Positions 4,495 through 44,439 of a stretch of 47,284 nt of DNA are shown piece after piece. The translations under genes were made by a program, and so were the position numbers. Every line of letters starts with the position of its first letter. Within the stretch, counting starts at the first letter, position 1. This DNA is from a virus, in IMG/VR virus record IMGVR_UViG_3300044957_000305, positions 1 through 47,284 of that record. One strand, 5' to 3'. The notes beneath the pieces are model-generated. The model made no database searches, was not told the DNA's origin, and saw only the letters and a program-made list of their open reading frames with translations.

Positions 4495-6234
4495 ATGAGT
4501 TGGCGAAGATATTTCACGCCTGTTAATACGGATGATCAAGGTGGTAATTTAAGTCCATTAACCAATAGAAATGGTAACAGACCTGGACCCGCACGTACAA
4601 ATTATAGTAGTTTTCTTCCTGACATTTATGTAGGAACACCTAATCGTATTGAAAGATATATGCAGTATGACACTATGGATATGGATCCAGAAATTAATGC
4701 AGCATTAGATATCCTTGCAGAATTTTGTACACAAAAAAATAGAGAAAATAATACAACTTTTAGTCTAAGTTTTAAAGATCGTGCCACAAATACAGAAATT
4801 CGTGTGTTACGTGAATACTTACAACAATGGTTTAAATTACAACAATTTGACACAAGATTTTTTCGTATTGTAAGAAATACTTTTAAATTTGGTGATGCTT
4901 GGTTCATACGTGATCCAGAAACACAAAAATGGTTTAATGTTGACCCCAGCAAGATGGTTAAGATTATTGTCAATGAAAGTGATGGTAAAAAGCCAGAACA
5001 ATATGTAATAAGAGATATTGCTCCCAACTTTAAAAATCTAGTTGCTACACAGGTACAACAAAGTCCACATCAAACTAATAATCGTGGAAGTAATTATATA
5101 GCTGGTGGTGGTATGGCTCGTGGTGCTACAGGTGCTTATCCAACTCAGTATGGCGATCGCTTTAGTTTAAACGAAAATGAGATGGCTATAGATGCTGCTC
5201 ATATTATACATTTAAGTTTAAGTGAAGGATTAGATAATAATTATCCTTTTGGTAATAGCCTACTTGAACAAGTTTTTAAGGTATACAAACAAAAAGAATT
5301 ACTTGAAGATGCTATTTTAATCTATCGTATACAACGTGCTCCAGAACGTAGAATTTTTTATATTGACGTAGGAAATATGCCCAGTCACATGGCTATGAGT
5401 TTTGTTGAGCGTGTTAAAAATGAGATACATCAACGTCGCATACCAAGTCAGAATGGTGGTGGTGTCAATATTATTGATAGTGCCTACAACCCATTAAGTA
5501 TTGGTGAGGACTATTTTTTCCCACAGACAGAAGGTGGCAGAGGTAGTAAGGTAGAAACACTAGCAGGTGGATCAAATTTAGGTGAAATTGATGATTTAAA
5601 ATATTTTACAAATAAATTATTTAGAGCATTACGTATACCTAGCAGTTATTTACCTAGTGGTCCAGATGATGGACAGCAACAATATAATGATGGTCGTGTA
5701 GGTACTGCCTATATTCAAGAACTGCGTTTTAATAATTATTGTATTAGATTACAAAGCCTCTTGACTAGTGTATTCGATGAAGAATTTAAGAGATTTTTAT
5801 ATCATCGTGGTGTAAACATTGATACAGGTTTGTTTGAACTAAAATTTCAATCTCCTCTAAACTTTGCTGCTTATCGTCAAAGTGAGATGGATGGGCAACG
5901 TATTAATACTTACAACACAATACAACAGATTCCATATATTAGTAAGCGTTTTGCTCTTAAGAGATTCCTAGGTTTGAGTGAAGAAGAGATGGCAGAAAAC
6001 GAAAATCTTTGGCGCCAAGAAAAGGGTATGGCACCTATTACTGGTACTGATGCCAGCGGTGAATTACGTAGTGCAGGACTTAGTGCAGCAGGTATTGATA
6101 GTGATCTTGAAATGGCAAGTGATACTACCGCACCAGAGGATATGACAGCAGGTATGCCTGGAAGTATGCCTCCAGGAACTGACACAGGTATGGGAATGAC
6201 ACCACCAGCAGCAGCTAGCCCAGTGCCAATGTAA
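4495..6234 (+). CDS. 20: Portal vertex protein of the head (gp20-like)
   Basis: 579 residues, near the size of T4 gp20 (about 520). The portal is a dodecameric ring at the unique head vertex; it nucleates the prohead, passes DNA during packaging and joins the neck. Family signs are the N-terminal RYMQYDTMDMDPEINAALDI block (about residues 54-73), the FKFGDAWFI segment (about 137-145), the acidic active-crown-like helices and the C-terminal stretch EIDDLKYFTNKLFRALRIP. The last 50 residues are low-complexity Met/Pro/Gly. The start follows a TAAGG that overlaps the preceding stop, with 8-base spacing. Its position directly upstream of the prohead core, gp21, gp22 and gp23 fits T4 gene order. 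Identity is firm. Confidence 0.96.
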   Translation: MSWRRYFTPVNTDDQGGNLSPLTNRNGNRPGPARTNYSSFLPDIYVGTPNRIERYMQYDTMDMDPEINAALDILAEFCTQKNRENNTTFSLSFKDRATNTEIRVLREYLQQWFKLQQFDTRFFRIVRNTFKFGDAWFIRDPETQKWFNVDPSKMVKIIVNESDGKKPEQYVIRDIAPNFKNLVATQVQQSPHQTNNRGSNYIAGGGMARGATGAYPTQYGDRFSLNENEMAIDAAHIIHLSLSEGLDNNYPFGNSLLEQVFKVYKQKELLEDAILIYRIQRAPERRIFYIDVGNMPSHMAMSFVERVKNEIHQRRIPSQNGGGVNIIDSAYNPLSIGEDYFFPQTEGGRGSKVETLAGGSNLGEIDDLKYFTNKLFRALRIPSSYLPSGPDDGQQQYNDGRVGTAYIQELRFNNYCIRLQSLLTSVFDEEFKRFLYHRGVNIDTGLFELKFQSPLNFAAYRQSEMDGQRINTYNTIQQIPYISKRFALKRFLGLSEEEMAENENLWRQEKGMAPITGTDASGELRSAGLSAAGIDSDLEMASDTTAPEDMTAGMPGSMPPGTDTGMGMTPPAAASPVPM

Positions 6235-6241
6235 TAAATAC

Positions 6242-6487
6242 ATGATGATTCTTCGAGAACTATTTTACTTAAATCCTGAGACAAATAGGGTTAGCAATGA
6301 CTTTAGGGTTAATTCAGCACGAAATATTGAAGAACTTATGCGTAGTGACACAAGAAAAACAAGATTAACCTTAAAACAGATAAATGATTTACGTAAGGCA
6401 TCTGAAGCACACATTTTAGAAACAGAAGAAGAAATGCAATTTGTTCAAAAAATGTATGGCACTGATCCAGCTCAACCCGCTGGTTAA
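6242..6487 (+). CDS. Small conserved protein in the gene 67 position
   Basis: 81 residues, starting 7 bases after the portal stop (two adjacent ATG codons; the first was taken). It carries a central DTRKTRLTLKQINDLRKASE segment followed by an acidic helix and a MYGTDP tail. I recognise the RKTRLTL...MYG pattern as a short conserved ORF found next to gp20 in aquatic T4-like phages. In T4 the same slot holds gene 67, an 80-residue prohead core protein, but I see no clear sequence likeness to it. A head-assembly role is therefore inferred from position. No strong Shine-Dalgarno is visible, suggesting translational coupling to the portal gene. Confidence 0.75.
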   Translation: MMILRELFYLNPETNRVSNDFRVNSARNIEELMRSDTRKTRLTLKQINDLRKASEAHILETEEEMQFVQKMYGTDPAQPAG

Positions 6488-6505: not shown

Positions 6506-7111
6506 ATGCAACCATTCGAACACGGTCCAATTGAGGGCTTAATCTGTCAGCAACACAAGGATTTTCAACATCCTTTTCGTAAATTTTTTAATGAAGTAAA
6601 ACCTACAACAGTAATAGAAATTGGTATAGGACAAGGTGCTACAAGTATAGCGTTGAACAGAATTTTGAAAGAAGTTGGTCACCAATATCAAATGATTAGT
6701 TATGAACTGTATCCACAGGGATGGTATTCAATGTTGAGCAATGAGGGCATTCTTGTAAGAATTTGTAACCTTTTCACAGATGATTATCAAAATATTCGAG
6801 AAAGTAACAAGCAAGAAATTGTAGGGAATCTTCAGCGTGAAGGTATTACAGTATTGCTTTGTGATGGCGGTTTAAAGAAAATGGAAGTTAATTTACTTAC
6901 TGATTACTTAAAGCAAGGTGATTTTGTAATGGCACATGATTATGTGAGAAATGTTGAATACTTTGAGCAAGCTATTAATCATCGTATATGGAATTGGTGC
7001 GAAATTACTGATGCTGACATACAAGAAACTATAGATAGAAATAAATTAGAAGATTTTATGCGTGATGAATTTCAAAGTGTAGCTTGGATGTGTCGTCGTA
7101 AACTTTTATGA
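6506..7111 (+). CDS. Class I SAM-dependent methyltransferase-like protein
   Basis: 201 residues with an AAAGGA ribosome site 5-6 bases before the ATG. Residues about 36-48 (VIEIGIGQGATSI) match the glycine-rich motif I that binds S-adenosylmethionine in Rossmann-fold methyltransferases. LLCDGGLKKMEVN (about 118-130) and DFVMAHDYV (about 138-146) occupy later strands, a pattern also seen in the cephalosporin-hydroxylase/methyltransferase group linked to sugar modification. No target-recognition domain is visible, so the substrate is unknown; a sugar or small metabolite is more likely than DNA. The stop codon overlaps the next start (ATGA), so the two genes are translationally coupled and probably act together. 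It is an accessory insertion within the capsid block. Confidence 0.7.
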   Translation: MQPFEHGPIEGLICQQHKDFQHPFRKFFNEVKPTTVIEIGIGQGATSIALNRILKEVGHQYQMISYELYPQGWYSMLSNEGILVRICNLFTDDYQNIRESNKQEIVGNLQREGITVLLCDGGLKKMEVNLLTDYLKQGDFVMAHDYVRNVEYFEQAINHRIWNWCEITDADIQETIDRNKLEDFMRDEFQSVAWMCRRKLL

Positions 7112-7695
7112 GAAGAAATTTCGTGTTTGGTAATGGTAGAACACGATTAAATATAGATTTTCATGAAGTTGAACCATATGGTTTAATCTATGCATGTAAT
7201 GCCGTTTATAGAGTATATGCACCAGATTTTTTAGTGGCAGTTGATCGTAAGATGATAGATGAAATAGCTAAAAGTAATTATCAACTTAGACATGAAGTAT
7301 GGACATATCCTTTTTTTAATAATTCGAATTATAAAAATTTTAATTTTATAGATCCTAATATGGGTTGGAGTAGTGGACCTACTGCTCTTTATCTCTGTAC
7401 TAAACATGAACCTAATGAGATTTATATTTTTGGATTTGATTTTGAAGGTCTAGAAGGCAAATTGAATAATGTATTTGCTGATACAGACAATTATAAGCGC
7501 AGTTTTGACTCAGCAACTTATTACGGTAATTGGTATAAACAAACAGAAACTATTATAAAAGAAAATACAAAAATAAGGTATATAAGAGTAACTATTCCAA
7601 ATTTTTTCTCACCAAAATGGAGTTATGATAACTATTCTGAAATAACTTATGAAAACTTTAAAAAGTTATTATCAGGATGGAGAAAAATACGCTAA
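7108..7695 (+). CDS. GT42/DUF115-like glycosyltransferase-like protein
   Basis: 195 residues, starting in a 4-base ATGA overlap with the methyltransferase-like gene. The N-terminus has FVFGNGRTRLNID (residues 5-17), then YACNAVYR and DFLVAVDRKM. The C-terminal half has WSSGPTALYLCTKHEPNEIY followed by IFGFDFEG. The order Gly-Asn-Gly, Cys-Asn, Ser-Gly-x-x-(A)-x-x-x-Cys and a strand ending G-(F/I)-D-F parallels bacterial CST-type sialyltransferases (GT42) and the related DUF115 fold, where the first motif contacts the nucleotide-sugar. The acceptor is unknown. Related ORFs of this size occur in aquatic T4-like phages, usually annotated hypothetical. The assignment rests on motif order remembered from the family, not an alignment. 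Confidence 0.6.
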   Translation: MRRNFVFGNGRTRLNIDFHEVEPYGLIYACNAVYRVYAPDFLVAVDRKMIDEIAKSNYQLRHEVWTYPFFNNSNYKNFNFIDPNMGWSSGPTALYLCTKHEPNEIYIFGFDFEGLEGKLNNVFADTDNYKRSFDSATYYGNWYKQTETIIKENTKIRYIRVTIPNFFSPKWSYDNYSEITYENFKKLLSGWRKIR

Positions 7696-7772: not shown

Positions 7773-8774
7773 ATGGGAGATCGTTCAAAATTCGAACAGA
7801 TGCTTGAATACCTTATTAATGATGAGGAAAATAAAGCACGAGATTTATTTCATGATATAGTTGTGGCTAAGAGCCGCGAAATCTACGAGAATCTATTAGC
7901 AGAAGATTTTGAAGAAGAAGAGACCGATGAAGGTCGTGATGAGGATGATGAGGATGTAGAAGAGAATATGGGCATGATGCCACCTCCTGAAGAGGAAGGC
8001 ATGATGGGTGTGCAAGATGCAACCGATGATATGATGAATGACGTAGAAGCCAGTGATGATGATATGGCCGACATGGACGGCGATATGGACGACATGGATA
8101 TGGGTAATGATAGTGAAGAAGAAATAGGTGACCGTTTGGACGATCTAGAGTCAGAGCTAGAAGCATTAAGAGACGAATTTGAAAGCCTAATGGGTGATGA
8201 AGGCGGCGAAGAAGATGATGACATGGACTCCATGGACGGCGAGGATGATATTAGTGACGAAGAAGATGATGATGAAATGAAGGATGCCATGGCTTTCGAA
8301 AAGCGTGGCGACGATGATGACGATGATGAAGAACAAACAGATGAAGACTTTATTCGTGAATATGTAGAAAAAGTAGGTGGCGGTAATTATAACACTTGGG
8401 GTAAGATGGGTGATGATGGTGCTAATACAAAAAGTATTATAGACAACATGAAAAATGATATGGGCGGAACAACAGCCAATATTCTAAATGGTGGCGAATA
8501 TAAAGGTAAAGAAGTAGGAGCTGGAAGTACAATTGAAGGCAATGGTGTTTTTAAACAAACCAAACCACAACTACAAGATGGTGGTAATATCAATGTTCCA
8601 GGCGGAAAGGCTGGTAAAACAGCATTTAAGAAGAGAGAGCCTGGTCATGGTCCAGAGAAGAAAGGCCCAGCAGAAGGTCAAGGATTGGGTTCAGGATCAG
8701 GTGGTCCACAGGGTCAAGTAGGTAGTATTAACACTAAGAGTCCAATTAGCGGCGCACCAAAAAGAGCTAAGTAA
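7773..8774 (+). CDS. Acidic prohead core protein (gp67/gp68-type)
   Basis: 333 residues preceded by AGGAG. The first 45 residues (KFEQMLEYLINDEENKARDL and onward) are a helical domain like the N-terminus of T4-type internal prohead core proteins. Residues about 45-195 are extremely acidic, with long Asp/Glu runs mixed with Met and Gly. The C-terminal 100 residues switch to Gly, Lys and Pro-rich basic sequence. Such a charge layout suits a core component that is cleaved and expelled during head maturation. Position immediately before the gp21 protease agrees with T4 genes 67/68. It is much longer than T4 gp68 (about 140 residues), so equivalence is by position and N-terminal character. Confidence 0.7.
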   Translation: MGDRSKFEQMLEYLINDEENKARDLFHDIVVAKSREIYENLLAEDFEEEETDEGRDEDDEDVEENMGMMPPPEEEGMMGVQDATDDMMNDVEASDDDMADMDGDMDDMDMGNDSEEEIGDRLDDLESELEALRDEFESLMGDEGGEEDDDMDSMDGEDDISDEEDDDEMKDAMAFEKRGDDDDDDEEQTDEDFIREYVEKVGGGNYNTWGKMGDDGANTKSIIDNMKNDMGGTTANILNGGEYKGKEVGAGSTIEGNGVFKQTKPQLQDGGNINVPGGKAGKTAFKKREPGHGPEKKGPAEGQGLGSGSGGPQGQVGSINTKSPISGAPKRAK

Positions 8775-8784
8775 CCACATATAG

Positions 8785-9411
8785 ATGAACTACTTACGAG
8801 AAAACTTGAGTTTTGATCAGGCACGTATAGTGGTCGAAAGTCAAGGAGAGAACGGCAAAGACCTTTATATGAAAGGTATTTGTATTCAGGGAGGTATAAA
8901 AAATGCCAACCAAAGAATATATCCTGTAGACGAAATAGAAAGAGCTGTCAAAACTTTGAACGATCAAATCTCAGGAGGATACAGCGTTCTAGGTGAAGTG
9001 GATCATCCTGATGACCTAAAGATTAATTTGGACAGAGTTAGTCACATGATTACAGAAATGTGGATGGACGGTCCAAATGGTTATGGAAAGTTTAAAATAC
9101 TGCCAACACCCATGGGACAATTAGTAAGAACTATGTTAGAAAGTGGAGTTAAGTTGGGAGTAAGTAGTAGAGGGTCAGGCAATGTCAGTGGAAATGGTAC
9201 TGGCAAAGTCAGTGATTTTGAGATTATCACAGTAGATGTGGTAGCTCAACCCAGTGCCCCAGGAGCTTATCCAACACCAATCTATGAACACTTGATGAAT
9301 AATCGTGGTGGTTATAGAGCCTTACGCATAGCGGAGGAAGTGAAGAAAGATCCTAAGGCGCAGAAGTACATTAAAGAGAGCCTATTATCAGTAATAGGCA
9401 AGCTCCGATAA
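8785..9411 (+). CDS. 21: Prohead core protease (gp21-like, peptidase S77)
   Basis: 208 residues, close to T4 gp21 (212). This serine protease resides in the prohead core and cleaves the scaffold, core and capsid proteins after (L/I)-x-Glu, then itself, before DNA packaging. The catalytic His is seen at residue 74 in GEVDHPDDL, and the nucleophile region in LGVSSRGSG (Ser127/Ser128). DFEIITVDVVAQPSAPGA after it is the conserved strand and loop of the family. The start codon has no clear Shine-Dalgarno but lies 10 bases after the core-protein stop, suggesting coupling. Identity is secure. Confidence 0.95.
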   Translation: MNYLRENLSFDQARIVVESQGENGKDLYMKGICIQGGIKNANQRIYPVDEIERAVKTLNDQISGGYSVLGEVDHPDDLKINLDRVSHMITEMWMDGPNGYGKFKILPTPMGQLVRTMLESGVKLGVSSRGSGNVSGNGTGKVSDFEIITVDVVAQPSAPGAYPTPIYEHLMNNRGGYRALRIAEEVKKDPKAQKYIKESLLSVIGKLR

Positions 9412-9427
9412 CAAGAGGAGAATCACA

Positions 9428-10528
9428 ATGTTGGATGTATTAAAAGGCTTATTTGAAAACAATGTGATTAGCGAAAACATTCGAGCTCAAATTGAGGAAG
9501 CATGGGAAGCCCGTGTAGCCGAAAATCGCGAACAACTCAGTCAGCAATTAAGAGAAGAATTTGCTCAACGATATGAGCATGATCGTAGTGTGATGATTGA
9601 AGCCATTGATAGAATGGTAACAGATCAATTGTCACCTGAAATTGCTGAGTTTGCGGAAGATCGTAAACAATTAGCTGAAGCCAAAGCCAAATATGCAATT
9701 AAGATGAAGCAGGATAGTGCTGTATTAAAGGAATTTATTACACGTAGTCTTGCTAAAGAAGTCAAAGAATTGCATGAAGATCAAAAGTTAATGGCAAACA
9801 AATTTTTTAAACTTGAAGAATTTGTGGTAGAAGCACTCGCTAATGAAATTGCAGAATTTTATACAGATAAGAAGGATCTAGCTAAGATTAAGGTTAAGTT
9901 AATTAAAGAAGGTCGTCAACAGCTAGGTAAGATGAAGAAAGAATTTGTTAAGCGTGCCGCAGTAATGGTAGAACAGGTTGTTACAAATAGTTTGAATACA
10001 GAACTTATACAACTTAAAGAGGACATTGAAGCAGCCCGCAGAGCAGATTTTGGTCGTAAAATATTTGAAGCATTTAGCAACGAATACCAGAACAGTTATT
10101 TAAATGAGAAATCAGAAACAAGTAAGTTGCTTAAGGTCATAAACAAGAAGGACTCCGCTATTAACCTAGCTAATACAGTAGCAGTTAAAGCTCAGAGAGT
10201 TATAGAAGGCAAAGACATGCAAATTCGTCGTATGAAAGAAGCAGCACACCGTAAGGAACTTATGGGCGAGTTGTTAGCTCCACTAAGCGCAGAACAAAAG
10301 GGAATTATGAGTGAACTTTTAGAAAGCGTACAAACTAAACGACTAAACGAAAGTTTTAACAAGTATCTACCAACAATTATTGAAGGTAGTACAGGTACAA
10401 CTAAAAAAAGACAGGCACTTGTAGAGGCAAAAGAAATTACGGGTAACAAGGTTACCACACAAAAGACAAACAGCAGCGAACTTGATAGTAACATCTATGA
10501 TATCCGTCGCCTCGCTGGACTTAATTAA
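9428..10528 (+). CDS. 22: Prohead core scaffolding protein (gp22-like)
   Basis: 366 residues with a strong AGAGGAG ribosome site. It is almost entirely helical, rich in Glu, Lys, Ala and Gln, with repeated E-F-x-x-D-(K/R)-K-x-L segments (for example ADEFAEDRKQ-like, HEDQKLM and YTDKKDLA) spaced roughly 45-50 residues apart, and a C-terminal NIYDIRRLAGLN. In T4, gp22 forms the bulk of the inner core around which gp23 assembles and is then digested by gp21. The size (T4 about 270), composition, order and proximity to gp23 all fit. Several L-x-E tripeptides could serve as cleavage sites. Confidence 0.92.
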   Translation: MLDVLKGLFENNVISENIRAQIEEAWEARVAENREQLSQQLREEFAQRYEHDRSVMIEAIDRMVTDQLSPEIAEFAEDRKQLAEAKAKYAIKMKQDSAVLKEFITRSLAKEVKELHEDQKLMANKFFKLEEFVVEALANEIAEFYTDKKDLAKIKVKLIKEGRQQLGKMKKEFVKRAAVMVEQVVTNSLNTELIQLKEDIEAARRADFGRKIFEAFSNEYQNSYLNEKSETSKLLKVINKKDSAINLANTVAVKAQRVIEGKDMQIRRMKEAAHRKELMGELLAPLSAEQKGIMSELLESVQTKRLNESFNKYLPTIIEGSTGTTKKRQALVEAKEITGNKVTTQKTNSSELDSNIYDIRRLAGLN

Positions 10529-10538
10529 GGAGATTAAA

Positions 10539-11717
10539 ATGTCACAACTACTAACAAATCGTTGGCAGGAGACAAAAGAGGCTTTACTTGAAGGCCTCCA
10601 AGGCACAAAAAAATCAGTGATGGGTGTAACTCTTGAGAATACTCGTAGGTATCTCGCAGAAACAGCAAGCGCTGGTACTACTTCTGCTGGCAACGTCGCA
10701 ACATTAAACCGCGTGATCCTTCCAGTGATCCGTCGTGTTATGCCAACCGTTATTGCTAACGAGTTGGTTGGTGTACAACCACTAACTGGACCAGTTGGTC
10801 AAATTCATACTTTACGTGTACGGTACGCTGATTCAGTTGGCGCTAACGGTGACGTTGTTGGAACAACAGCTGGTGAAGAAGCACTAAGTCCATTCAAAAT
10901 TGCTGAGCAGTATTCCGGTGCTAACAACGGTAAGGCTGCAAGTACAGCTACCATGGAAGGTGTTGCTGGTCGTAGAATGAGCATTCAGATCCTCAAGCAA
11001 ACAGTTGAAGCTAAAACTCGTAAGTTAAGCGCTCGCTGGACATTTGAGGCTGCACAAGATGCACAAGCTCAACAAGGTATTGACATAGAAGCAGAAATCA
11101 TGGCTGCTCTTGCGCAAGAAATTACTGCTGAAATTGATCAAGAAATTTTAGCAAGTCTTTCTTCATTGGCTGGCAACGCTTTAGTAACATTTGATCAAGC
11201 TACTGTAAGTGGTACAGCTACATTTGTTGGTGACGAACATGCTGCATTGGCAGTGCTAATTAACCGTGTTGCTAATATTATTGCTCAACGCACACGTCGT
11301 GGTGCTGCTAATTGGGCAGTAGTAAGTCCACTAACATTGACTATTCTACAAAGCGCAACAACAAGTGCATTTGCTCGTACAACAGAAGGTACATTTGAAG
11401 CACCAACTAACACCAAGTTTGTTGGTACATTAAACGGCGCAATGAAAGTATATGTAAATACATATGCAAGTGATGCAGATCCAATTATTGTTGGATACAA
11501 AGGTAGTAGCGAAAGTGATGCTGCTGCATTTTATTGTCCATACATTCCATTGATGAGCAGTGGTGTTGTTCTAGATCCATCAACTTTTGAACCAGTCGTA
11601 TCATTTATGACACGTTATGGTTATGTAGAGTTGACAAATACAGCAAGTTCTCTTGGTAATGCAGCAGATTATCTTGGCAAGGTAGGAATTAATCGTCCTA
11701 ACGTCAAGTTTAGCTAA
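10539..11717 (+). CDS. 23: Major capsid protein (gp23-like)
   Basis: 392 residues. The start at 10539 is chosen over an in-frame upstream ATG at 10482 because AAGGAG sits 6 bases before it and the longer form would overlap gp22. It is an HK97-fold shell subunit. Recognisable stretches are VLP-type residues NRVILPVIRRVMPTVIANEL, GVQPLTGPVGQIHTLRVRY, the (S)ARWTFEAAQDAQAQQGID segment and the C-terminal SFMTRYGYVELTN. It is shorter than T4 gp23 (521) because insertion domains are reduced. A YLAE/T sequence at residues 38-42 matches the gp21 cleavage rule L-x-E and would remove a 41-residue helical propeptide. The codon pattern is richer in C-ending codons than neighbouring genes, consistent with high expression. 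Confidence 0.96.
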   Translation: MSQLLTNRWQETKEALLEGLQGTKKSVMGVTLENTRRYLAETASAGTTSAGNVATLNRVILPVIRRVMPTVIANELVGVQPLTGPVGQIHTLRVRYADSVGANGDVVGTTAGEEALSPFKIAEQYSGANNGKAASTATMEGVAGRRMSIQILKQTVEAKTRKLSARWTFEAAQDAQAQQGIDIEAEIMAALAQEITAEIDQEILASLSSLAGNALVTFDQATVSGTATFVGDEHAALAVLINRVANIIAQRTRRGAANWAVVSPLTLTILQSATTSAFARTTEGTFEAPTNTKFVGTLNGAMKVYVNTYASDADPIIVGYKGSSESDAAAFYCPYIPLMSSGVVLDPSTFEPVVSFMTRYGYVELTNTASSLGNAADYLGKVGINRPNVKFS

Positions 11718-11742: not shown

Positions 11743-11768
11743 AAAAGGCACCGTTAAAGGTGCCTTTT
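11743..11768 (+). terminator. Intrinsic terminator after the capsid gene
   Basis: A perfect 10-bp stem (AAAAGGCACC / GGTGCCTTTT) with the six-base loop GTTAAA, ending in a T run. It begins 25 bases after the gp23 stop and closes the head operon. Confidence 0.93.
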
Positions 11769-11801
11769 CTATTAAATATGCTTACTTTTTTAGGAATCTA
11801 T

Positions 11802-12479
11802 ATGGATATAGAGTTGCATATTTTTACAAACAGCACAATACATGCACCAGACACTTGGCACATAGAAAATACATATCGTAGCTTTAAAGAAACTTGGAAA
11901 AAAGATATGCCAGTAACAGTATGGTGTGATCGTAATCCAAATAAAGAACGTTGTGAAGAATATATTGAAGCTTTGCGTAAGTTATTTCCTATTGTTAATA
12001 CAGAGGTAGGTGGACTAAGTCATGGGTATCATCAAGCGGTAAGAGGGTGCGATACAGAATTTTTATTTATGTTAGAACACGACTGGGAATTTTATGCTAA
12101 TCGTATATTTCATAAATTGGATCAAATTTTAGATGGTATGCGTAAAGATAATATTTTACATCTTAGGTTTAATAGAAAACCGGCCAATGAACCTGATGCA
12201 CACGCCAGTTTTGGACATGATATAGAATGGGAAGATTATGAAGGCAGTGTATTTCCCTACGCTATGGTTAAACAGGTAAGTAACAATCCTCATATCATCA
12301 ATAGACAGCGTTGGTTAGATGAAGCAGCACAACACACTCACTATATAAGATTTGGTGGTGAATATGGACTTGAAGAATATTTAACAGCCAGTCCTATTAG
12401 AGGTGCTATATATGGCCCAAGAGGTCACCCACCAACTATCAAACACACTGATGGTAAAGATCCAGAATTTAAAAAGTAA
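11802..12479 (+). CDS. GT-A-like glycosyltransferase
   Basis: 225 residues from the ATG at 11802, which has AGGA 6 bases upstream. A longer frame from a GTG at 11760 is rejected because it would begin inside the terminator stem. The protein opens with a strand (MDIELHIFTNSTI) and has a FLFMLEHDWEFY segment (about residues 88-99). There an acidic E-H-D takes the place of the metal-binding DxD of GT-A enzymes, followed by a hydrophobic strand and a NPHIINRQRW stretch typical of phage glycosyltransferase-2-like proteins. It lacks membrane segments, so a cytosolic enzyme modifying a virion or host glycan is inferred. It is flanked by a terminator and a late promoter, which makes it look like an inserted single-gene unit. 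Confidence 0.65.
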   Translation: MDIELHIFTNSTIHAPDTWHIENTYRSFKETWKKDMPVTVWCDRNPNKERCEEYIEALRKLFPIVNTEVGGLSHGYHQAVRGCDTEFLFMLEHDWEFYANRIFHKLDQILDGMRKDNILHLRFNRKPANEPDAHASFGHDIEWEDYEGSVFPYAMVKQVSNNPHIINRQRWLDEAAQHTHYIRFGGEYGLEEYLTASPIRGAIYGPRGHPPTIKHTDGKDPEFKK

Positions 12480-19997: not shown

Positions 19998-22900
19998 ATG
20001 AGCACAAATATTAGATTTAAACGCAGTGATATACCTGGTAAAATACCATCACTTGATAGCATTGACCTAGGTGAATTAGCAATTAACACCGCTGATGGTA
20101 AACTTTTCACAAAGCAAGAAGTAAAAGCAGGAGCAGGTGTAGCAGCTATTCAAAAAATTATTGAGATTGGAGCTTCTGAAGTACCTAACGTACTCTATGT
20201 TGCCAAGAACGGTGATGATAGTAATAGTGGAAGGACTTTAGGTCAAGCTTTTTTAACTCTAAAGAAAGCCTTAAGCATATCGACTCCTGGGACAACTATT
20301 TTCTTAAAGAGTGGGGAGTATATTGAAGACAATCCTCTACGTGTTCCAGCTCGTGTGTCAATTGTTGGTGACAATTTGCGTAATACCACTGTTCGTCCTA
20401 AGAATGTAACTAAGGATATATTTTGGGTATACAACGGTGCTTATATATTCTGTATGAATTTTAAAGGACATATTGCCCCAAGTGCGGCAGTATGTTTTCC
20501 ACCAGATGGTAGTGCTGGTGAGATAGTAACCAGTCCATATACTCAAGCTGTTACAAGTATTACAACTACTGGTACAGGTATGCGTGTTGATGGCGCAGTG
20601 ACAACAGGTCTACGTTCAATGGTTTGTGATGCGTTTACACAGTACAATCAAGGTGGTATCGGTATTTACATGTTGAACAGAGGTAATACTCAGCTTGTAT
20701 CTATCTTTACAATTTGCTGTGACATTAGCTTTATGTGTGAGAACGGTGGTTTCTGTTCAGTTAACTTATCAAATAGCTCATTTGGTAATTTTGGTTTAGT
20801 AAGTCGTGGCGCAAGTGAACCTCTATATAGAGGTGTTGTTAAGAAAAGTGCTGGTCGCCAGATAACATTTAAGAATTTAGCTAAGCGTCCAAATATTGGT
20901 GATGGCGTACTTTTTGCTGATTATAATCAAGTTACATGTAACAGAGACAATGGTCTAGTAGTGGATGGTCTAGCATTTGATTTATTATATGAAGGTACTA
21001 CTCAAAGTACATTTGCTGGCCTACGTTATTGGAAAAAAGACAATTTAATAACTCCAATAGAGCAGTTAGCCCCAACAGTTGCAGCTATTAAACGTGCTCA
21101 AATAGTTGCTAAGGGTGTAATTGCTGGTACAAACGGTACAATTGCAGGTCAAGTTTTACCTGGTACTTTAAGTATTCAACCTGGCAATTCAACAGCTCAA
21201 CGTCTAGCTGGCGAAGCCTTTGGGATTGTTGCTGCGATTGTGGAAAATGGCCCAACCAGTCCAAGCCTAATTGTAGGCCCAGATTTGGACGCAGCGGAAC
21301 CAGAATATAAAACTTTAAGAGAAACAGTATTAGATAGACAAAGTCAAATTGTTGATCAAACTATTGACTTTTTAACAAAGAATTATCCAAGATTACCTTA
21401 TAGTAAATCAAAATGTATGAGAGATTTATCACTTGTTATCAGTGCCATAGCAGATGATATGATCTTGGGTACTAATTATAGAACAATTAAGGCAGCTCTT
21501 TCTTATCTAAGTTCAACTACAAGCCTTGGTTACACTATTCCAAGTGATCAACGAGATGCAACAAGAGAAGCTTTTAAGTTTGCTAGAGATAAAATTGTAC
21601 CAATTATACAAGAGGATGCGACCTTATTAGCAAGAGTACAAGCTAATTTTACCATTATTGATGAAACATTAGTTCGTGGTGCAAGTTATATTACTGATAT
21701 TACATCTGTTGGCAGTAGTGATGACAACAAATTATCTTATCCAATTTTACAAGATACAGATTTAACAGTTAAAAATCTTGTTAATAATTTACAAGCTAAC
21801 AAAGACTTTATAAAGGCCGAAGTCAACGATTATGTTAAGAAAAACTGGCCAGCAGTTGTAGCTTATGGCTATAATGAGGAGACATGCAAGCGTGATATTG
21901 GCTTTGCACTTGATGCCATATGCTATGACATATTATATGGTGGCAATAGTCAAACATTGGATGCAGCTAAGAGATACTTTAATTATGCTAGCGGATTAAC
22001 AGAACTACGTAGCAGTGAAGAAGTTCCAGCTACGGTTGATGCTTTTGGTCGTGTGCAATTATTAAGTCAGCGTGTGGTAATTTTAGATCCCATTGTGAAA
22101 CAACAAGTGGAAGTATTTCAAGTGTTCGACAATTTAATAGCAACTACTCAAACGCAAGTTAATAGATTAGGTGGATTGTTTAGTATATTCCTAAAACAAC
22201 TTGAAACAGATATTGTTGCTACAAGTGACTTTATTCAACCAAATGGTTCACGTACAGATGATAATAATTTAGAATATGCTTATACATTATTACAAGCCAA
22301 TAAAGCTGCTATTAAGACAGATGTTATCAATTATCTAGCAAGGGCTTTCCCTGCATTTAATTATGATAAAGTTAAATGTGCTCGCGATGTAGGTTATATT
22401 GTTGATAGTGTGTGTTTTGATCTAGTGCACGGTGGTAATCGTCAAAGCGTACAAGCTGGTATTTACTATTATGATTTTAATGAAGAAAGTAATGTTTTAA
22501 AATCAGTATTGCCAAATCAAATAAAACAAACTGTAAATGCTTATAAGTATATGAAAGAGGTATTACGTGATGTTTTAACTTGTAGCCCTGTTCCAAATCC
22601 ATGGCAAGGTGTAGTACCACAGCGTATTGATTTACCAGCAGCTACAGGTAGTGAAGTAGTAGCAGTTAGTAATTTAATTGATATTATTAATGAAATACTT
22701 ATTGAGGGTCCAAATAATACTGAAGATAGTATTCAAAGAATTAAACAACCAATTGCACTAACAGCCAGTGGTGATATTAATAAACAACGTGCTTTTAATC
22801 TATTAATGGCTAATCGTCAGTTTATTCAAGCTGAAATGTTGGCCTTTATAAATCAAAATTGGTTTGTAATCAGTGATGGTGATACAAGTTTTGCTCGTGT

Positions 22901-25900
22901 TAATACTGCTACTGAACTAACCTTAGGAACAACTACAACAGGTTTTCCAACGGTAACATATCAGCCAGCAAGTTTAAAGGCTATTCGTGATGCAGTATTA
23001 GCAGCAAAAGAAGAAATTAAGGCTGAAACAATTAAGTTTATGGCTAATAGCTTTTTTGATAACTTTAGTTTTAATAAACCAAAATGTTATAGAGATGTAG
23101 GTTTAATTCTTGATGCAATTTTAAGTGATATGGTATTTGATAGTAATTATAAAACAATTACTGCTGCTATCAGTTACCTACGTGCATATTCAAGCGAAGT
23201 ATTAGGTGCACAGAAAGTGCAAACTATAGCTGCATTAGAAGCAGCTAAAAAAATAACATTAGCAAGAATTGTAACACCCGCCGCGAAAACAGAAATAAGT
23301 ACAAGATTTGATATCATTCTTGATATTCTTGAAAAGGAAACAGGTGACGGCTACACAGTAACATTCCCAATACCAGCAAAAAATAGTGAAGAAGATATTG
23401 ATCATTATACAGCAGTTAATATTTTGCGTGACAATATAGACTTCATTAAGAAAGAAATTGTAGCTTATATTGATGCAAACTTTACTTTAAATGAATTTGA
23501 TAGAGAAAAATGTAATCGTGATACAGGTCTTATAATTGATGCATTGGGTTACGACCTAATGTTTATTAGTAATTTCCGTAGTATCAGTGCAGGTCGTGCA
23601 TATTTAAGAGCAAATGCTAAAACAGTTCAAGGTAGTCAAAAATTAGCTACACTTGGTGCATTTAGACATCTAAAGAAACTAGCTGTGGCCATCGTTAAAT
23701 CAAATAGCCTTGCAGTTAATAGTATTCAAAGCAATATGGACATAATCCTAGATATCCTTGATAAGGGTGAGAGTGCAGTACCTAAGTTTATGATTCCATT
23801 TCCAGAAAAAGGTCGTAGCATAGGATTTAAACGTGCCCGTGATTTAGTACAAAAAAATAGAGAATTTATTGTAGATGAAGTACTTACCTATGTAAATACT
23901 CCAGGTTTAGAATTACTAAGAGGTACAGTCACTCATCAAATAAATCCTATTACAAATCAATTTTTTACTGATGGTAGTTTTTATCAAGAAGTAGCAACAA
24001 ATGCAAATTTAAATACTTTAGTAGTAGGTGATCTTGTTAGAATTAGTGGGAAGTTATTTGGAACAAGTACAATTGGAGGATACGCAAATCCATCAACATA
24101 TAAAGTATCAGTTGTAACTACGGGCACTGGTCCAGGTGTTCAATTCCAAAAATTTAAACTTGTCAACTTAGACGGAACTGCTCTTGTTACAACACCAGGT
24201 ACAACTGGAAAAACAACAAGTATGAGATTTGAAGTTATCAAAACAGGTACATACGCTGTGCCAACAGGTTTTGATTTTGATAAATGCCGTCGTGACCTAA
24301 ATCTAATTTTAGATGCTGTATTCTATGATACAACTTATGGTGGTACATTAGAAAGTGTAATTGCTGCTAAAAGTTATTTTGTAGGTGCAGTAAGTCAACT
24401 TAATCCTAGCGGTAATGCTGAAGACGAAGTTGCTGCTACTATTAGAGCTTATGAATTACTAAGAACAGTTATTAAAGAAGTTGCAGAAGATAATCTTTGG
24501 GTACCAACAGTAGGCAATACAACATCTCAGGTACGTAGCCCAAATGGTAGTGATGGTAGTGAAGAAGCTGCACGTGAAATGGGTACATGTATTGATTTTA
24601 TTCTAAATGTACTACGTGATGATTCAACAATTGAGGTAAATCTAGATACACAAGCTACACAACCAGATATCAGTTGGGTTGATCCAAAGGCAAGAGCAGC
24701 ATATGATGCATTACAAGCAGTAAAATTTGATACAGAAGAAGCTGTATCAGATTTTGTAGATGAAAATTATGTATTATTTGGTTATGATCGTGCTAAATGT
24801 GCTCGTGATGTTGGTAATGTTATTGAAGCTGTACGTTTTGACATGATGTTTAACAGCAATTTCCGTAGTATTGTAGCTGGTCGCAGCTACTATCGTGCTG
24901 TTGCTAGTACAGTTGTTAAGGATCAAAAACCAGCTACATTAGCCAGTTTTCAATTCTTGAAAGGAAAACTACTTGAAATAGTTAAAGCAGTTGATCCAGA
25001 TAATCCAACAGCAGATGAAAGCGCAAGTATTCAGCGTGTAAGTCGTAGCATGGATATAATATTAGACATTTTAGAAAATGGTTTAACAGCAGAGCCAGCA
25101 TTTATACGTCCAGAGGCAACAGGTACTGGTGTAAGATCACAAGCAGTATTGACATTGCGTAATAATATTGAAAGTAAGCGTGATGATATAGAAGATGATT
25201 TGATCGAATGGATTGATGATCAAATTGAGAATAATCCAGCTTATGAAGATGTTGAATATGATGAAACAGCTTGCCGTAGAGATGTTGAGTATATCTTAGA
25301 TGCACTATACTATGATCTAACCTATGGTGGTAATTTAGAGACAAGAGTGGCTGCTCAAGCATATTATGCTGCCGCAGATGATAACATTCCTTTAGCACTT
25401 GGATCTGATGAAATACAACTAACACTTGCTGCTTACGCTCAACTTAAGGTAATTATTGATGGATATACAGATGCCCCAGTTGTCCCAAGTAATACCCTTA
25501 TTGACCTTATAATTGACTATATTAATACTGGTATTTTAGATGCTCAAGATATTCCTGACATTAGTTGGGTAAATTTAGGTATTAGAACATTTAATACAAA
25601 ACTAAGCGAAGCAAGCGTAGTTTCAAGACTTAAGCAACAAGTAACAGACTTTGTAGACTTAAATTTTGCCTATAATAAAGAGAAATGTGCTCGTGATGTA
25701 GGTTTCTTAATTGATGCTCTATGCTATGACATATTATATGGTGGAAACGTAGAAACTACACAGGCTGCTACTGCATATTTTGATGGTGCAGTAACTCCAA
25801 AAAGTACTATTCCAAAGCAAATTATTCAAACAGTGGCCGCTTATGAGAGACTGAAGGATGTTGTGTCTAACGTAGTACAATTGAAAGATGTACTGCCAAG

Positions 25901-28900
25901 CACAAATAGTTTTACAGCCAAACAGCGTTTGGAAAGTAGTATGGATCTAATTATTGATATAGTTGCGAATGGTGAGAAAAACACTCCACCAAGACCATAT
26001 ATTATGCCTCTACCAACCGTTGTCCCTAATGTTACAAATAATGCCAGCGTGCGAGGTTATCTAAATGCACGTAATAATATCAGTGCTAATAGAGAATTTA
26101 TAAAGGCAGAAACTATTGATCATATTGATAGTCAAGTAAACCCACCAAACTATAATAAAGTTAAGTGTGAGCGTGATATTGATCTACTTCTTGATGCAAT
26201 ATTATATGACTTAACTTATGGTGGTAATGCTGCTACAAGAATAGCCAGTGCTGCTTACTATGATGCAAGTGAAACATTAGGTACAGGTGAAGTTGTTGCA
26301 ACTACAGATGCTTATACAGTAATGGCTAATATCATTGAGTCAGTTGCTTTAGGAGAATTAATTGCTCCAACTAAACAAAATCGTGTTGTACAGGTAGTTG
26401 GAAATAGCGTTGAGGTTGAGACTTCTGGAGCTCATACTACTGCTAAGAATCTTGTACTAGAAATTGTAGTGAGAACAGTTGACGTAAAAAATTCAACAGA
26501 ATTGCAGACGGGATCAAGCTTTACAATTGTAGCTTTAGGTACAAATGTTAATTGGAATGCTGCAGGTGTAGGTGTTACTCCAGCAGTTGGAACAGTATTT
26601 ACAGCCACAGGGTCAACAACTACAGGTAGTGGTGGTAAAGTTATTAGAACTGTACAAGCGGCAGTAGCTCCATCAACACTTTGGGTAGATACAACATTAA
26701 CAGAGATCAATGCGTTTATTAATGCAGCTTGGATTGCAGAAGTTAAGAATAAAGTTAATTTAATCTTTAATCCAACTGCACCAGGTGCAGTCAATCAGTT
26801 TCCGTCTATTAATTATACTGGTGCATTAAGAAGTAGTTGTGAAGAAGATATTGATGATATAATTCTTGCTGTACGTTTTGATATGTTGTTTGGTAGTAAC
26901 TTTAGAAGTCAGGTAGCTGGTCGTGCATATTTCCGTGCAATAACTGGTGCTCAAAATGTATTAGCTACGCAAAAGGATGCAAGTCTTGCTGTATTTCAAT
27001 TAGTTAAAGATCAATTTGCTGATCTTGTAGCAACTGCTGTTCCTGAACAGGTCAAGGCAGGCAAAGCAGGTAATGTTACTGCTGCCGCTGCTGCTGCTGC
27101 CCTAGTTCAAAATATTATTGCTTTTATTGATAATGATTTAGATGATCCAAACGAAGTAGAAGCAAACACAGCATGGGTTGATCCAGATCTTGTTGTATTA
27201 AGTACAACTCTGGAAGATAGTAAGAATGGTGAAAATGGTGTAGCTAATATACCAGTAAGTATTACAACATATATTAATGATCGTTTTCCAGAGTTAGATT
27301 ATAGTAGAGATGATTGTCAAGAAGATATCCGTAGTATCACAGATGCGGTACGTTTTGATATGATGTTTGGTGGTAATTTCCGTACAATAAGTGCTGCTCG
27401 TGCATATTTCCGCGCAGTGGCGGCAAAAGCAGTAGGTGTACAAAAAATTGCTACATTGGAATCATTTAGATTACTCAAAGAAAAATTAACTGATTTTGTC
27501 AAGACTAATGCTACTGCCCTCGACAGAGTATCAGCCAGTATGGATCTATTAATTAGGATAGTTGACAAAGGTCCAAAAGCTATTCCTCAATTTGTTGTTC
27601 CAAGTCCAAGTAATTATAATGGTACATTCTTGCACACATTTGGATATGCTCGTAATCTAATTGAAACAAACCGAGATTTTTTAAAGAATGAAGTTCTAAA
27701 ATGGATTTCAGTAAATAGGCCAACATTAGATTTTAAAGAAGATAAGTGTTTACAAGATTTAGATTTTATTTTAGACGCTATATATTATGATATGACTTAT
27801 GGCGGCAATATGGAAACAATAATTGCTGGTGGTGCATATTACAGAGGTAGTCGTGCAAACGATTTAAGCCTACCACAAAGGCCTACAATTGATGGTGACG
27901 ATGTTGAAGCTACAATTGCCGCTTATGGCTACTTGAAGGAATTAATAGAAAAAGTTGCACAGGGTCAGGATGTAAGTCAATTACAAATTGTTATTAAACA
28001 AGTTGGTGGTGAGCCAGGTAGTATTGGTGGTGCTCAAACTGCTAAGAATCTTGCTTATGTTGTTAGAAACTTAATTAACAACACAGGAACATATGCAGTT
28101 CAAGCTCCAACATTTGTAGTTCCTGATATAAGTTGGGTAGAATTAGAGCTTAAGACTCCAAATGACCTAATTGAGTTATATAAGACCAGTGATGCTGGAA
28201 GTGGTGGTTATTTGGGTAGGAGTAGTGTACAAAGTAAATTGACACAATGGATTACTATACAACAAGAATTAGCTGATCCAATTGCCCCAACAGCGTCTAC
28301 ACTGGTTCAGACTGGTCCACTTGCTGGAACCACAGTACTAAGAGTAGGTAGTTTTACGGATTGGTATAAGGTTAATAATAATAGTCTAGTAGTAGTAAAT
28401 GCTACACAGTTGACAGTTGGCAAGAAATATAAAATATTATCCGCAAATGGCAGTGCATTTACATCAGTAGGTGCTGCTTCAAATAATATTGGCGTGGTAT
28501 TTACTGCTACAGGTGCAAGTGCAGGTGGTACAGGTACTGTACACGAAATGTATACCTATAATGTAGATAAGTGTGAGCGCGATATAGGTCTTGTAATGGA
28601 TGCTGTACGTTATGATATGATGTTTGGTACAAACTTTAGAACTAGAACAGCAGCAATTAGTTACTGGAGACAGCAGGCTAATAATGCCCTATTTTCAGGA
28701 AGTACAGAAAACAGTACATATCCACAGAAGAACGTTTCAAAATTCTTGTTTACTTATATGAAAGAATTATTACAGACTCTTCCAACCACTGTACCTAAAG
28801 CTGGAGCTCCATCTATTCCAGGCATTAGCCCAGGTACAGCACGGACAAGAATTGGTGCATTGATGGATTTGGTTATTGGTATGTTTGATTCATCTGTGGA

Positions 28901-44178: not shown

Positions 44179-44439
44179 ATGGCTTTGGCATTAAACATTG
44201 GTTTTAATACTGAAAACGTAGTTTTTTACTACGTTGATATGCCTACAACTCTTAAATTTGATTATACCAAAAAAATTTTTAAGAATATTTTTTACTGTCA
44301 GCCTGTAAAATTTGATGTCATTAGCAATGTAACCAATTCATCAGCAATTATTAGAAAGCTATTTTCTTCAATGACATATTGGCATAAAGATCATATCCAT
44401 AAAAATTTTTTAGGCCAAAGTTGTAGAAGAAATAAATGA
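44179..44439 (+). CDS. Small protein of unknown function coupled to the collagen-like gene
   Basis: 86 residues, starting 9 bases after the previous stop, with a short AAGGGA before the ATG. The sequence ([20 protein letters not shown] and onward) is rich in Phe, Tyr, Asn and Lys, with no recognised domain; the C-terminal third is basic with three His residues. Its stop codon overlaps the start of the collagen-like gene (ATGA, 44436-44439), a typical translational coupling, which argues that it is real. It could be a fibre chaperone or attachment factor; no evidence chooses. Confidence 0.55.

What the first reader, a model, noticed from the sequence alone, without database searches (positions are those of the whole stretch)
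6506..7695. Coupled methyltransferase-like and sugar-transferase-like genes inside the capsid operon
Two overlapping accessory genes sit between the portal and prohead core. One has a SAM-binding motif, the other the GNG...CN...SSG...FGFDF order of GT42/DUF115 proteins. Coexpression with head genes at late times suggests glycan modification of virion or released host surface, not a general metabolic role.
Basis: partly seen in the sequence, partly recalled or inferred. Interest (0 to 1): 0.5.

Follow-up and report, generated by a model that had tools for sequence, protein, structure and literature searches.

The report
Sugar-transfer genes in phage head operon
A virus of bacteria, related to giant T4-like phages, carries between its shell-building genes a gene for a sugar-transferring enzyme and, in its own branch, a partner methyl-transfer gene, which suggests that it decorates its own particle with sugar; this has not been tested in the laboratory.

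Summary
MT (6506-7111) and GT (7108-7695) overlap by ATGA between gp20/orf81 and the putative prohead-core gene. GT: a confident AlphaFold2 model (pLDDT 92, pTM 0.90) matches Maf flagellin glycosyltransferase (Z 13.4) and Cst-II sialyltransferase (Z 10.5), but the conserved histidine expected of a GT42 catalytic base is missing, so it is GT42/Maf-like, not a filed GT42 member. MT: a class I methyltransferase by sequence only, below the curated cut-off. GT occupies one fixed slot (66 of 66 testable collapsed loci) and co-diverges with the head genes (r 0.87), yet is absent in 38 of 64 loci of a sample drawn by gp21; the tree needs 6 gains or losses. MT occurs only with GT (20 of 20). Two additions: a GT-A glycosyltransferase, orf239, follows gp23 and tracks MT perfectly (10 of 10; 0 of 37 without MT); and all 4 long relatives with MT+GT+orf239 encode KDO-8-phosphate synthase. 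Best reading: late, cytosolic, Maf-like decoration of a virion protein, plausibly from CMP-Kdo, then methylated. Enzyme class is well supported; target and donor are inferred.

The parts
4495..6234 (+). gp20 portal protein, upstream neighbour
   Evidence: Portal_T4 E 2e-106; phrog_213 portal 7e-110
6242..6487 (+). orf81, small gene between portal and MT; at the position of T4 gene 67 (recalled)
   Evidence: phrog_13986 unknown function 1.7e-6; conserved in the same place in relatives and, weakly, in the jumbo isolates Phosso, GAP32 and PAC2
6506..7111 (+). MT: class I SAM methyltransferase-like protein, 201 aa; motif I EIGIGQGATS, later motifs CDGG and AHDY
   Evidence: Methyltransf_24 E 2e-4 over profile 1-105 of 105, below the cut-off; 9 of 9 members match; 19-sequence alignment keeps E38, G40, G44, D120-G121-G122 and H144-D145-Y146 in every row
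7108..7695 (+). GT: Maf/GT42/DUF115-fold putative glycosyltransferase, 195 aa; start codon inside the MT stop (ATGA)
   Evidence: AlphaFold2 pLDDT 92.1, pTM 0.90; VIA-align Maf 5mu5 Z 13.4, Cst-II 1ro7 Z 10.5, MjHPPK 8sd5 Z 9.7; Pfam CST-I hit by 10 of 41 members (best 1.7e-4) and MptE-like by 14 of 41 (best 0.0042); phrog_30607 6.9e-28
7773..8774 (+). acidic putative prohead core protein, right border of the slot
   Evidence: position before gp21 and conservation across contigs; no family match better than E 0.14
8785..9411 (+). gp21 prohead protease
   Evidence: Peptidase_S77 1.3e-25; phrog_207 3e-57
9428..10528 (+). gp22-like scaffold, by position
   Evidence: phrog_10922 unknown function 7.6e-78
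10482..11717 (+). gp23 major capsid protein (ORF as listed; the real start is probably the ATG at 10539)
   Evidence: Gp23 1.7e-97
11760..12479 (+). orf239: GT-A-fold putative glycosyltransferase directly after gp23; acidic motif E94-H95-D96-W97
   Evidence: AlphaFold2 pLDDT 78, pTM 0.82; Foldseek 5ggf POMGNT1 3.6e-7; VIA-align Z 14.6, 184 aligned; co-occurs with MT 10 of 10, 0 of 37 without MT

Best explanation
GT is a CMP-sugar-type glycosyltransferase of the Maf/GT42 fold that is made together with the head proteins and puts an acidic keto-sugar on Ser/Thr of a virion protein (most likely a head protein) in the cytosol while the head assembles, in the way Maf enzymes decorate flagellin. In the window's branch, MT methylates that sugar (or the acceptor) and the GT-A enzyme orf239, encoded after gp23, adds a further sugar. 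The donor could be CMP-Kdo, which Gram-negative hosts make and whose sugar supply these phages boost with their own KDO-8-phosphate synthase. Shown by computation: the folds, the fixed slot, the ATGA overlap, the linkage of MT with GT and of orf239 with MT, and kdsA in long relatives. Inferred: late expression, activity, acceptor, donor, and the order of the steps.
For: Fold: (Maf Z 13.4 over 173 residues; Cst-II 10.5; other sialyltransferases 6.8-10.3). Sequence: Pfam CST-I and MptE-like matched by 10 and 14 of 41 members. GT lies between orf81 and the core gene in 66 of 66 testable collapsed loci. GT distances follow head-protein distances (r 0.874, 0 of 2000 permutations as high). MT occurs only with GT (20 of 20) and orf239 with MT (10 of 10, against 0 of 37). 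orf239 fold. KdsA over the curated cut-offs NF003543 and TIGR01362 in 4 of 4 long MT+ contigs; kdsA plus a KdsB-like gene in a fifth, GT-only contig. Maf of C. botulinum uses CMP-Neu5Ac and CMP-KDO on flagellin Ser/Thr (PMC11339370, abstract and passages). NeuB was found in 0 of 13 phage records, so a phage-made sialic-type sugar has no support. Purifying selection.
Against: No His is conserved after the GFD motif (best 12 of 41 at residue 139), whereas Cst-II uses His188 as base (PMC4202792, passages); GT could be inactive or use another base. Foldseek alone gives no hit under E 0.001 in the PDB (best 1.2e-3). MT was not folded and is below every curated cut-off. The kdsA cluster lies about 50-70 kb from the head genes, beside tail-fibre-like genes, with transferases of its own, so kdsA may serve those. 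The window itself (47 kb) holds no kdsA region. GT is missing in 38 of 64 related loci, so it is not needed for head assembly. NeuB absence says nothing about host-made CMP-sugars.
Confidence: 0.5

Rival explanations
1. The enzymes act on the host surface: late in infection they cap or methylate LPS/O-chain so that released virions are not trapped on debris or so that rival phages cannot adsorb.
For: Phage glycosyltransferases near tail-fibre regions are usually read this way (PMC7029224 and PMC7824862, passages). A kdsA-centred glycan cluster beside fibre-like genes exists in 4 of 4 long relatives. GT relatives in HTVC008M lie near carbamoyltransferase and 2OG-Fe(II) oxygenase genes.
Against: It does not explain why GT sits always in one slot between head genes and co-diverges with them.
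Confidence: 0.27
2. GT is a catalytically dead or non-transferase Rossmann protein with a role in head assembly (for instance a nucleotide-sensing or scaffold-binding factor), and MT modifies a head protein directly.
For: No conserved His after the GFD motif; 14 of 41 members carry a mostly basic N-terminal extension beginning [MN]xKxDK; MjHPPK and thiamine pyrophosphokinases are also structural neighbours (Z 8.0-9.7).
Against: About 50 positions at 95% identity or more, clustered on the GNG, CN, SSGP, GFD and NN/NY/GNW motifs typical of an active site; repeated loss without loss of the head operon.
Confidence: 0.13
3. The genes hypermodify phage DNA (base methylation and glycosylation) as anti-restriction.
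For: Phage glycosyltransferases on DNA are a known kind (cited in PMC12619734, section 12).
Against: The GT fold is of CMP-sugar or flagellin/oligosaccharide transferases, not DNA glucosyltransferases (no DNA glucosyltransferase among the rows shown); position among late head genes. Nucleoside content could not be tested.
Confidence: 0.05
4. The genes are auxiliary passengers with a metabolic role and no special link to the head.
For: Patchy presence (26 of 64 loci).
Against: Slot 66 of 66; co-divergence with head proteins; ATGA overlap in the window and MT ending in ATGA in 15 of 20 loci.
Confidence: 0.05

Closest known systems
Maf flagellin glycosyltransferases (structure 5mu5, Magnetospirillum)
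   Same: Best structural neighbour (Z 13.4, 173 of 195 residues); class acts in the cytosol on Ser/Thr of a self-assembling structural protein, with CMP-nonulosonates and, for CbMaf, CMP-KDO (PMC11339370).
   Different: 195 aa single domain against a 632-residue chain; 14% identity; phage head operon; no flagellin; Pfam MptE-like not reached at cut-off.
GT42 sialyltransferases Cst-I/Cst-II
   Same: Fold (Z 10.1-10.5), order GNG, CN, SSG, GFD; Pfam CST-I weakly matched by 10 of 41 members.
   Different: No conserved His after the GFD motif; donor and acceptor unknown.
MptE/DUF115 (archaeal 6-hydroxymethylpterin diphosphokinase, 8sd5)
   Same: Fold (Z 9.7 over 134 residues); Pfam MptE-like weakly matched by 14 of 41.
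   Different: Shorter alignment than to the transferases; no pterin or folate context seen.
TylF/CmcI/rhamnosyl O-methyltransferase-type class I methyltransferases (Methyltransf_24, RMNT_CmcI)
   Same: Weak sequence matches of MT (2e-4 and 0.023); sub-significant profile match to CmcI 2bm8 (E 0.73).
   Different: Below all curated cut-offs; substrate unknown.
GnT-I/POMGNT1-like GT-A transferases
   Same: orf239 model matches 5ggf at Z 14.6; its E-H-D resembles the E-D-D metal motif of GnT-I (recalled).
   Different: 13% identity; low-confidence stretches; no family match by sequence.
Mycobacteriophage virion glycosylation (Freeman et al. 2023, not held; seen as cited in PMC12619734)
   Same: Phage glycosyltransferases put glycans on capsid and tail tube.
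   Different: Unrelated phages and hosts; no relation to this GT tested.

Membership tests
GT42 (Cst-like sialyltransferases) | GT42 fold | tested here: met
   VIA-align Z 10.5 to 1ro7, 176 aligned, rmsd 4.0, on a model of pLDDT 92
GT42 (Cst-like sialyltransferases) | conserved catalytic histidine (His188 in Cst-II; PMC4202792) | tested here: not met
   In 41 sequences no His column after the GFD motif exceeds 12 of 41; the only strongly conserved His, residue 100 (35 of 41), lies at the end of the helix before that motif. Tested on the sequence alignment, not by superposing atoms.
GT42 (Cst-like sialyltransferases) | Pfam CST-I at curated cut-off | tested here: not met
   Window protein not matched at E<=1; 10 of 41 members at E<=0.1, best 1.7e-4
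Maf/DUF115 (PF01973) | fold of the central transferase domain | tested here: met
   5mu5 Z 13.4, 173 aligned
Maf/DUF115 (PF01973) | Pfam MptE-like at curated cut-off | tested here: not met
   Window 11.8 bits against 34.6; 14 of 41 members at E<=0.1, best 0.0042
Maf/DUF115 (PF01973) | transfer of a CMP-nonulosonate to a structural protein | not testable with these tools
   needs enzyme assay and mass spectrometry
Class I SAM methyltransferase (Methyltransf_24-like) | SAM motif I and post-motifs kept in relatives | tested here: met
   E38, G40 and G44 of the motif-I stretch, D120-G121-G122 and H144-D145-Y146 in 19 of 19
Class I SAM methyltransferase (Methyltransf_24-like) | Pfam Methyltransf_24 at curated cut-off | tested here: not met
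   22.7 against 26.3 bits; 9 of 9 members match at E<=0.1, best 6.7e-5
Class I SAM methyltransferase (Methyltransf_24-like) | fold | not tested
GT-A glycosyltransferase (orf239) | GT-A fold | tested here: met
   Foldseek 5ggf 3.6e-7, 257 matches under 0.001; VIA-align Z 14.6; the top rows are GT-A transferases, with nucleotidyltransferases of related fold (2x5s, KdsB) among the rows

The most novel reading that the evidence does not exclude
Many T4-like jumbo-type phages of fresh and marine waters carry a head-operon enzyme that O-glycosylates the growing capsid with a keto-acid sugar (Kdo or a relative) from CMP-Kdo, a Maf-like system for viral capsids, with phage-made KDO-8-phosphate feeding it and a methyl cap (MT) and second sugar (orf239) added in one branch; its repeated loss reflects selection by hosts or predators that read the capsid surface.
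Probability: 0.22. Interest if true: 0.75.

Novelty: new variant of a known kind. Interest (0 to 1): 0.52.

Why it matters
Virion glycosylation is known in few phages. A slot-fixed, head-linked transferase of Maf/GT42 fold in a widespread group of uncultured phages would show that sugar-coated heads are common in aquatic T4-like viruses, would give a new minimal (195 aa) CMP-sugar transferase with an unusual active site, and would make a clean test possible: related phages with and without the gene in the same slot already exist in the data.

Tried and rejected
A tblastn search of MT and of orf239 in the 50,697 phage records gave no match, so there is no annotated isolate for either. Sequence profiles of GT and orf239 against PDB sequences gave nothing at E<=10. 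MT against PDB sequences: best E 0.095, not significant. A phage-made sialic-type donor was looked for through NeuB: 0 of 13 records; most of these records are fragments. CTP_transf_3: over the cut-off in 1 of 13 records, a second weak hit (G001, 1e-4, below the cut-off) is a sugar nucleotidyltransferase-like protein, not KdsB. KdsA: 5 of 22 records, 0 of 5 complete isolates (three jumbo phages and two pelagiphages); the 17 records without it are mostly fragments of 36-187 kb, so no correlation with GT can be claimed.

A cellular relative of MT was sought in genome contigs: one hit (Opitutia MAG, 38% identity); its neighbours show no glycan operon and gave no clue. T4 late-promoter octamers were sought: one exact hit, before 12559, and only one-mismatch sites near MT/GT, some inside genes; inconclusive. 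The moraphage paper (PMC12619734, sections 11 and 12 read) describes aquatic jumbo phages with four core putative glycosyltransferase families; whether the window belongs to that lineage was not tested. Literature: no paper was found that describes a sialyltransferase-like gene between portal and protease (search) or kdsA in phages; only open-licence PMC papers were searched and, apart from the papers named here and in the report, only listings were seen.

Biases: the loci used for the slot count were mostly found through GT or MT itself. The gp21-based sample is the 80 best of at least 599 stretches, plus three isolates; of those 83 loci, 61 span gp20 to gp21 (25 with GT) and 64 span orf81 to gp21 (26 with GT, 3 with MT). 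Rows dropped: loci with gp20 fragments under 250 aa, and the three long-branch isolates. The first tree (quick, with isolates) needed 7 changes, the careful one without them 6. In the collapse, 199 loci became 119 by sharing identical 300-mers, which may also merge close relatives.

Full report
What is there. The window is a fragment of a T4-like phage head module followed by large fibre-like genes. By portal protein its nearest annotated records are jumbo phages: Sinorhizobium phage Phosso (469 kb, 48.5% identity), then the XaC1, PBECO4/121Q, GAP32 and PA5oct types. Gene order is gp20 (4495-6234), orf81 (6242-6487), MT (6506-7111), GT (7108-7695), an acidic putative core gene (7773-8774), gp21 protease (8785-9411), a gp22-like gene, gp23, orf239. 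MT and GT overlap by ATGA. No clear Shine-Dalgarno stretch precedes the GT start, so coupled translation is likely (my reading).

GT. PHROGs gives phrog_30607 (unknown function, 6.9e-28) and a weak alpha-2,3-sialyltransferase family (0.0071). An alignment of 41 sequences gave a model of pLDDT 92.1 and pTM 0.90. Foldseek against the PDB puts a Pasteurella sialyltransferase first at E 1.2e-3, with no match under 0.001. The VIA-align second look gives Maf glycosyltransferase 5mu5 at Z 13.4 (rmsd 3.8, 173 aligned), Cst-II at 10.5 (176 aligned), Cst-I at 10.1, MjHPPK at 9.7 (134 aligned) and human sialyltransferases at 6.8-7.5. Against predicted viral structures the top matches are uncharacterised phage proteins, with DUF115 and MptE-like names further down and a GT29 name below E 0.001 significance. 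Scanning all 41 members, CST-I is matched by 10 (best 1.7e-4) and MptE-like by 14 (best 0.0042). Against simple membership: Cst-II uses His188 as base (PMC4202792, passages), and no His is conserved after GFD in this family. Conserved instead are N120-N121, N128-Y129 and N141-W142..Q145-T146.

MT. The evidence is by sequence only: Methyltransf_24 at 2e-4 over the whole profile but under the cut-off, in 9 of 9 members, with weaker hits to FtsJ and to rhamnosyl O-methyltransferase/CmcI. Its fold was not predicted. One cellular relative was found, in an Opitutia MAG (38%).

Distribution. After collapsing 199 loci to 119, 74 have GT and 20 have MT. All 20 with MT have GT. GT lies between orf81 and the core gene in 66 of 66 loci where both borders are seen. 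MT ends in ATGA in 15 of 20. Most of these loci were found through GT or MT, so this does not measure how common GT is. A sample drawn by gp21 (80 contigs and 3 isolates) gives 64 loci spanning orf81 to gp21, 26 with GT and 38 without. Of the 37 GT-less loci where a core gene was recognised, 36 have 68-175 bp between orf81 and the core gene, and Phosso has 501. On a careful tree of gp20+gp21 (53 rows: 20 with GT, 33 without) presence needs 6 changes, at least 5 forced by well-supported branches; distances of GT and head proteins correlate at r 0.874, with 0 of 2000 permutations as high. The simplest story is an old member of the head module, inherited with it and lost several times; the count cannot tell gain from loss. 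Complete isolates Phosso, GAP32 and PAC2 have no GT anywhere; HTVC008M and Mosig have distant relatives, in HTVC008M not in the head operon but near carbamoyltransferase and 2OG-Fe(II) oxygenase genes.

orf239. This gene after gp23 has no family match. Its model (pLDDT 78, pTM 0.82, with weak stretches) is a GT-A fold: POMGNT1 5ggf at Foldseek 3.6e-7 and Z 14.6, then B4GALNT1, Mimivirus R699 and GnT-I. Among 47 collapsed loci that reach at least 900 bp past gp23, 10 have MT and orf239, and 37 have neither (28 with GT, 9 without). In long records MT and orf239 are in G001-G004 and in none of G005-G008. These belong to one branch, so shared descent alone could explain the link.

Sugar supply. 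Five of 22 contigs encode a DAHP/KDO8P-type synthase. In G001-G004, the four longest contigs (122-400 kb) with MT+GT+orf239, it passes the curated KDO-8-phosphate synthase cut-offs (NF003543, TIGR01362) and lies about 50-70 kb from GT. Its neighbours include a Glyco_transf_8-like protein (4.3e-4, under cut-off), a Methyltransf_11 protein, and in G003 a cytidylyltransferase/heptose-adenylyltransferase-like protein, beside fibre-like genes. G006 (330 kb, GT only) has kdsA and a KdsB-like gene (KdsB subfamily hits down to 2.3e-53, under their cut-offs; CTP_transf_3 over cut-off). NeuB was found in 0 of 13. KdsA is absent from 5 of 5 complete comparison phages. CbMaf accepts CMP-KDO as well as CMP-Neu5Ac on flagellin (PMC11339370). 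This makes CMP-Kdo a reasonable donor for GT, but the kdsA cluster has transferases of its own, and the link is indirect.

Mechanism. Most likely GT acts on a virion protein in the cytosol during head assembly. The slot, the overlap and the co-divergence support the head link; fold and conserved pocket-type motifs support nucleotide-sugar chemistry; the Maf analogy supplies the way a structural protein is decorated before or during assembly. Acceptor, donor, activity and timing are not shown. Host-surface modification is the main rival and is the usual reading for phage LPS genes (PMC7029224, PMC7824862, passages).

Verdict. Observation confirmed; interpretation partly supported; a new variant of a known kind (phage glycan-modifying enzymes). 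The unusual points are the fixed head-operon slot, the missing GT42 histidine, and the three-enzyme set with phage KDO synthesis.

Noticed in passing
window 19998-39086: One open frame of 6362 aa, with recurring motifs of the type CxRDVGxxxDAxxYD, an enormous fibre-like or structural protein.
   Followed up: no
window 44436-47284: Collagen-like G-V-Q repeats, running off the end of the window.
   Followed up: no
L221 (G001), L222 (G002), L223 (G003), L224 (G004): Conserved kdsA-centred glycan cluster next to fibre-like genes and a gene resembling T4 uvsW (by eye) in all four long relatives of the window's branch.
   Followed up: partly
L225/L203 (G006: 200261-202148): kdsA, a Pal/OmpA-like lipoprotein (by eye) and a kdsB-like gene in a row in a 330-kb phage contig.
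   Followed up: partly
14 of 41 GT sequences in A4, e.g. L065, L084, L083: N-terminal extension of about 38-55 aa, mostly basic, beginning [MN]xKxDK, absent from the window's GT; a possible head-targeting or scaffold-binding peptide.
   Followed up: partly
L215 (G005: 183952-184434): A second, diverged GT-like gene (2e-26) far from the head operon in a 187-kb contig.
   Followed up: no
L204 (G001: 281584-284883): A cluster with a sugar nucleotidyltransferase-like protein and two related 249/256-aa proteins beginning ..VxVTGHLR.., probably glycan genes.
   Followed up: no
L153 and L155: gp23 occurs in inverted copies facing each other, probably an assembly artefact.
   Followed up: no
L181: The core gene is split into two frames; a frameshift or insertion was not examined.
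   Followed up: no
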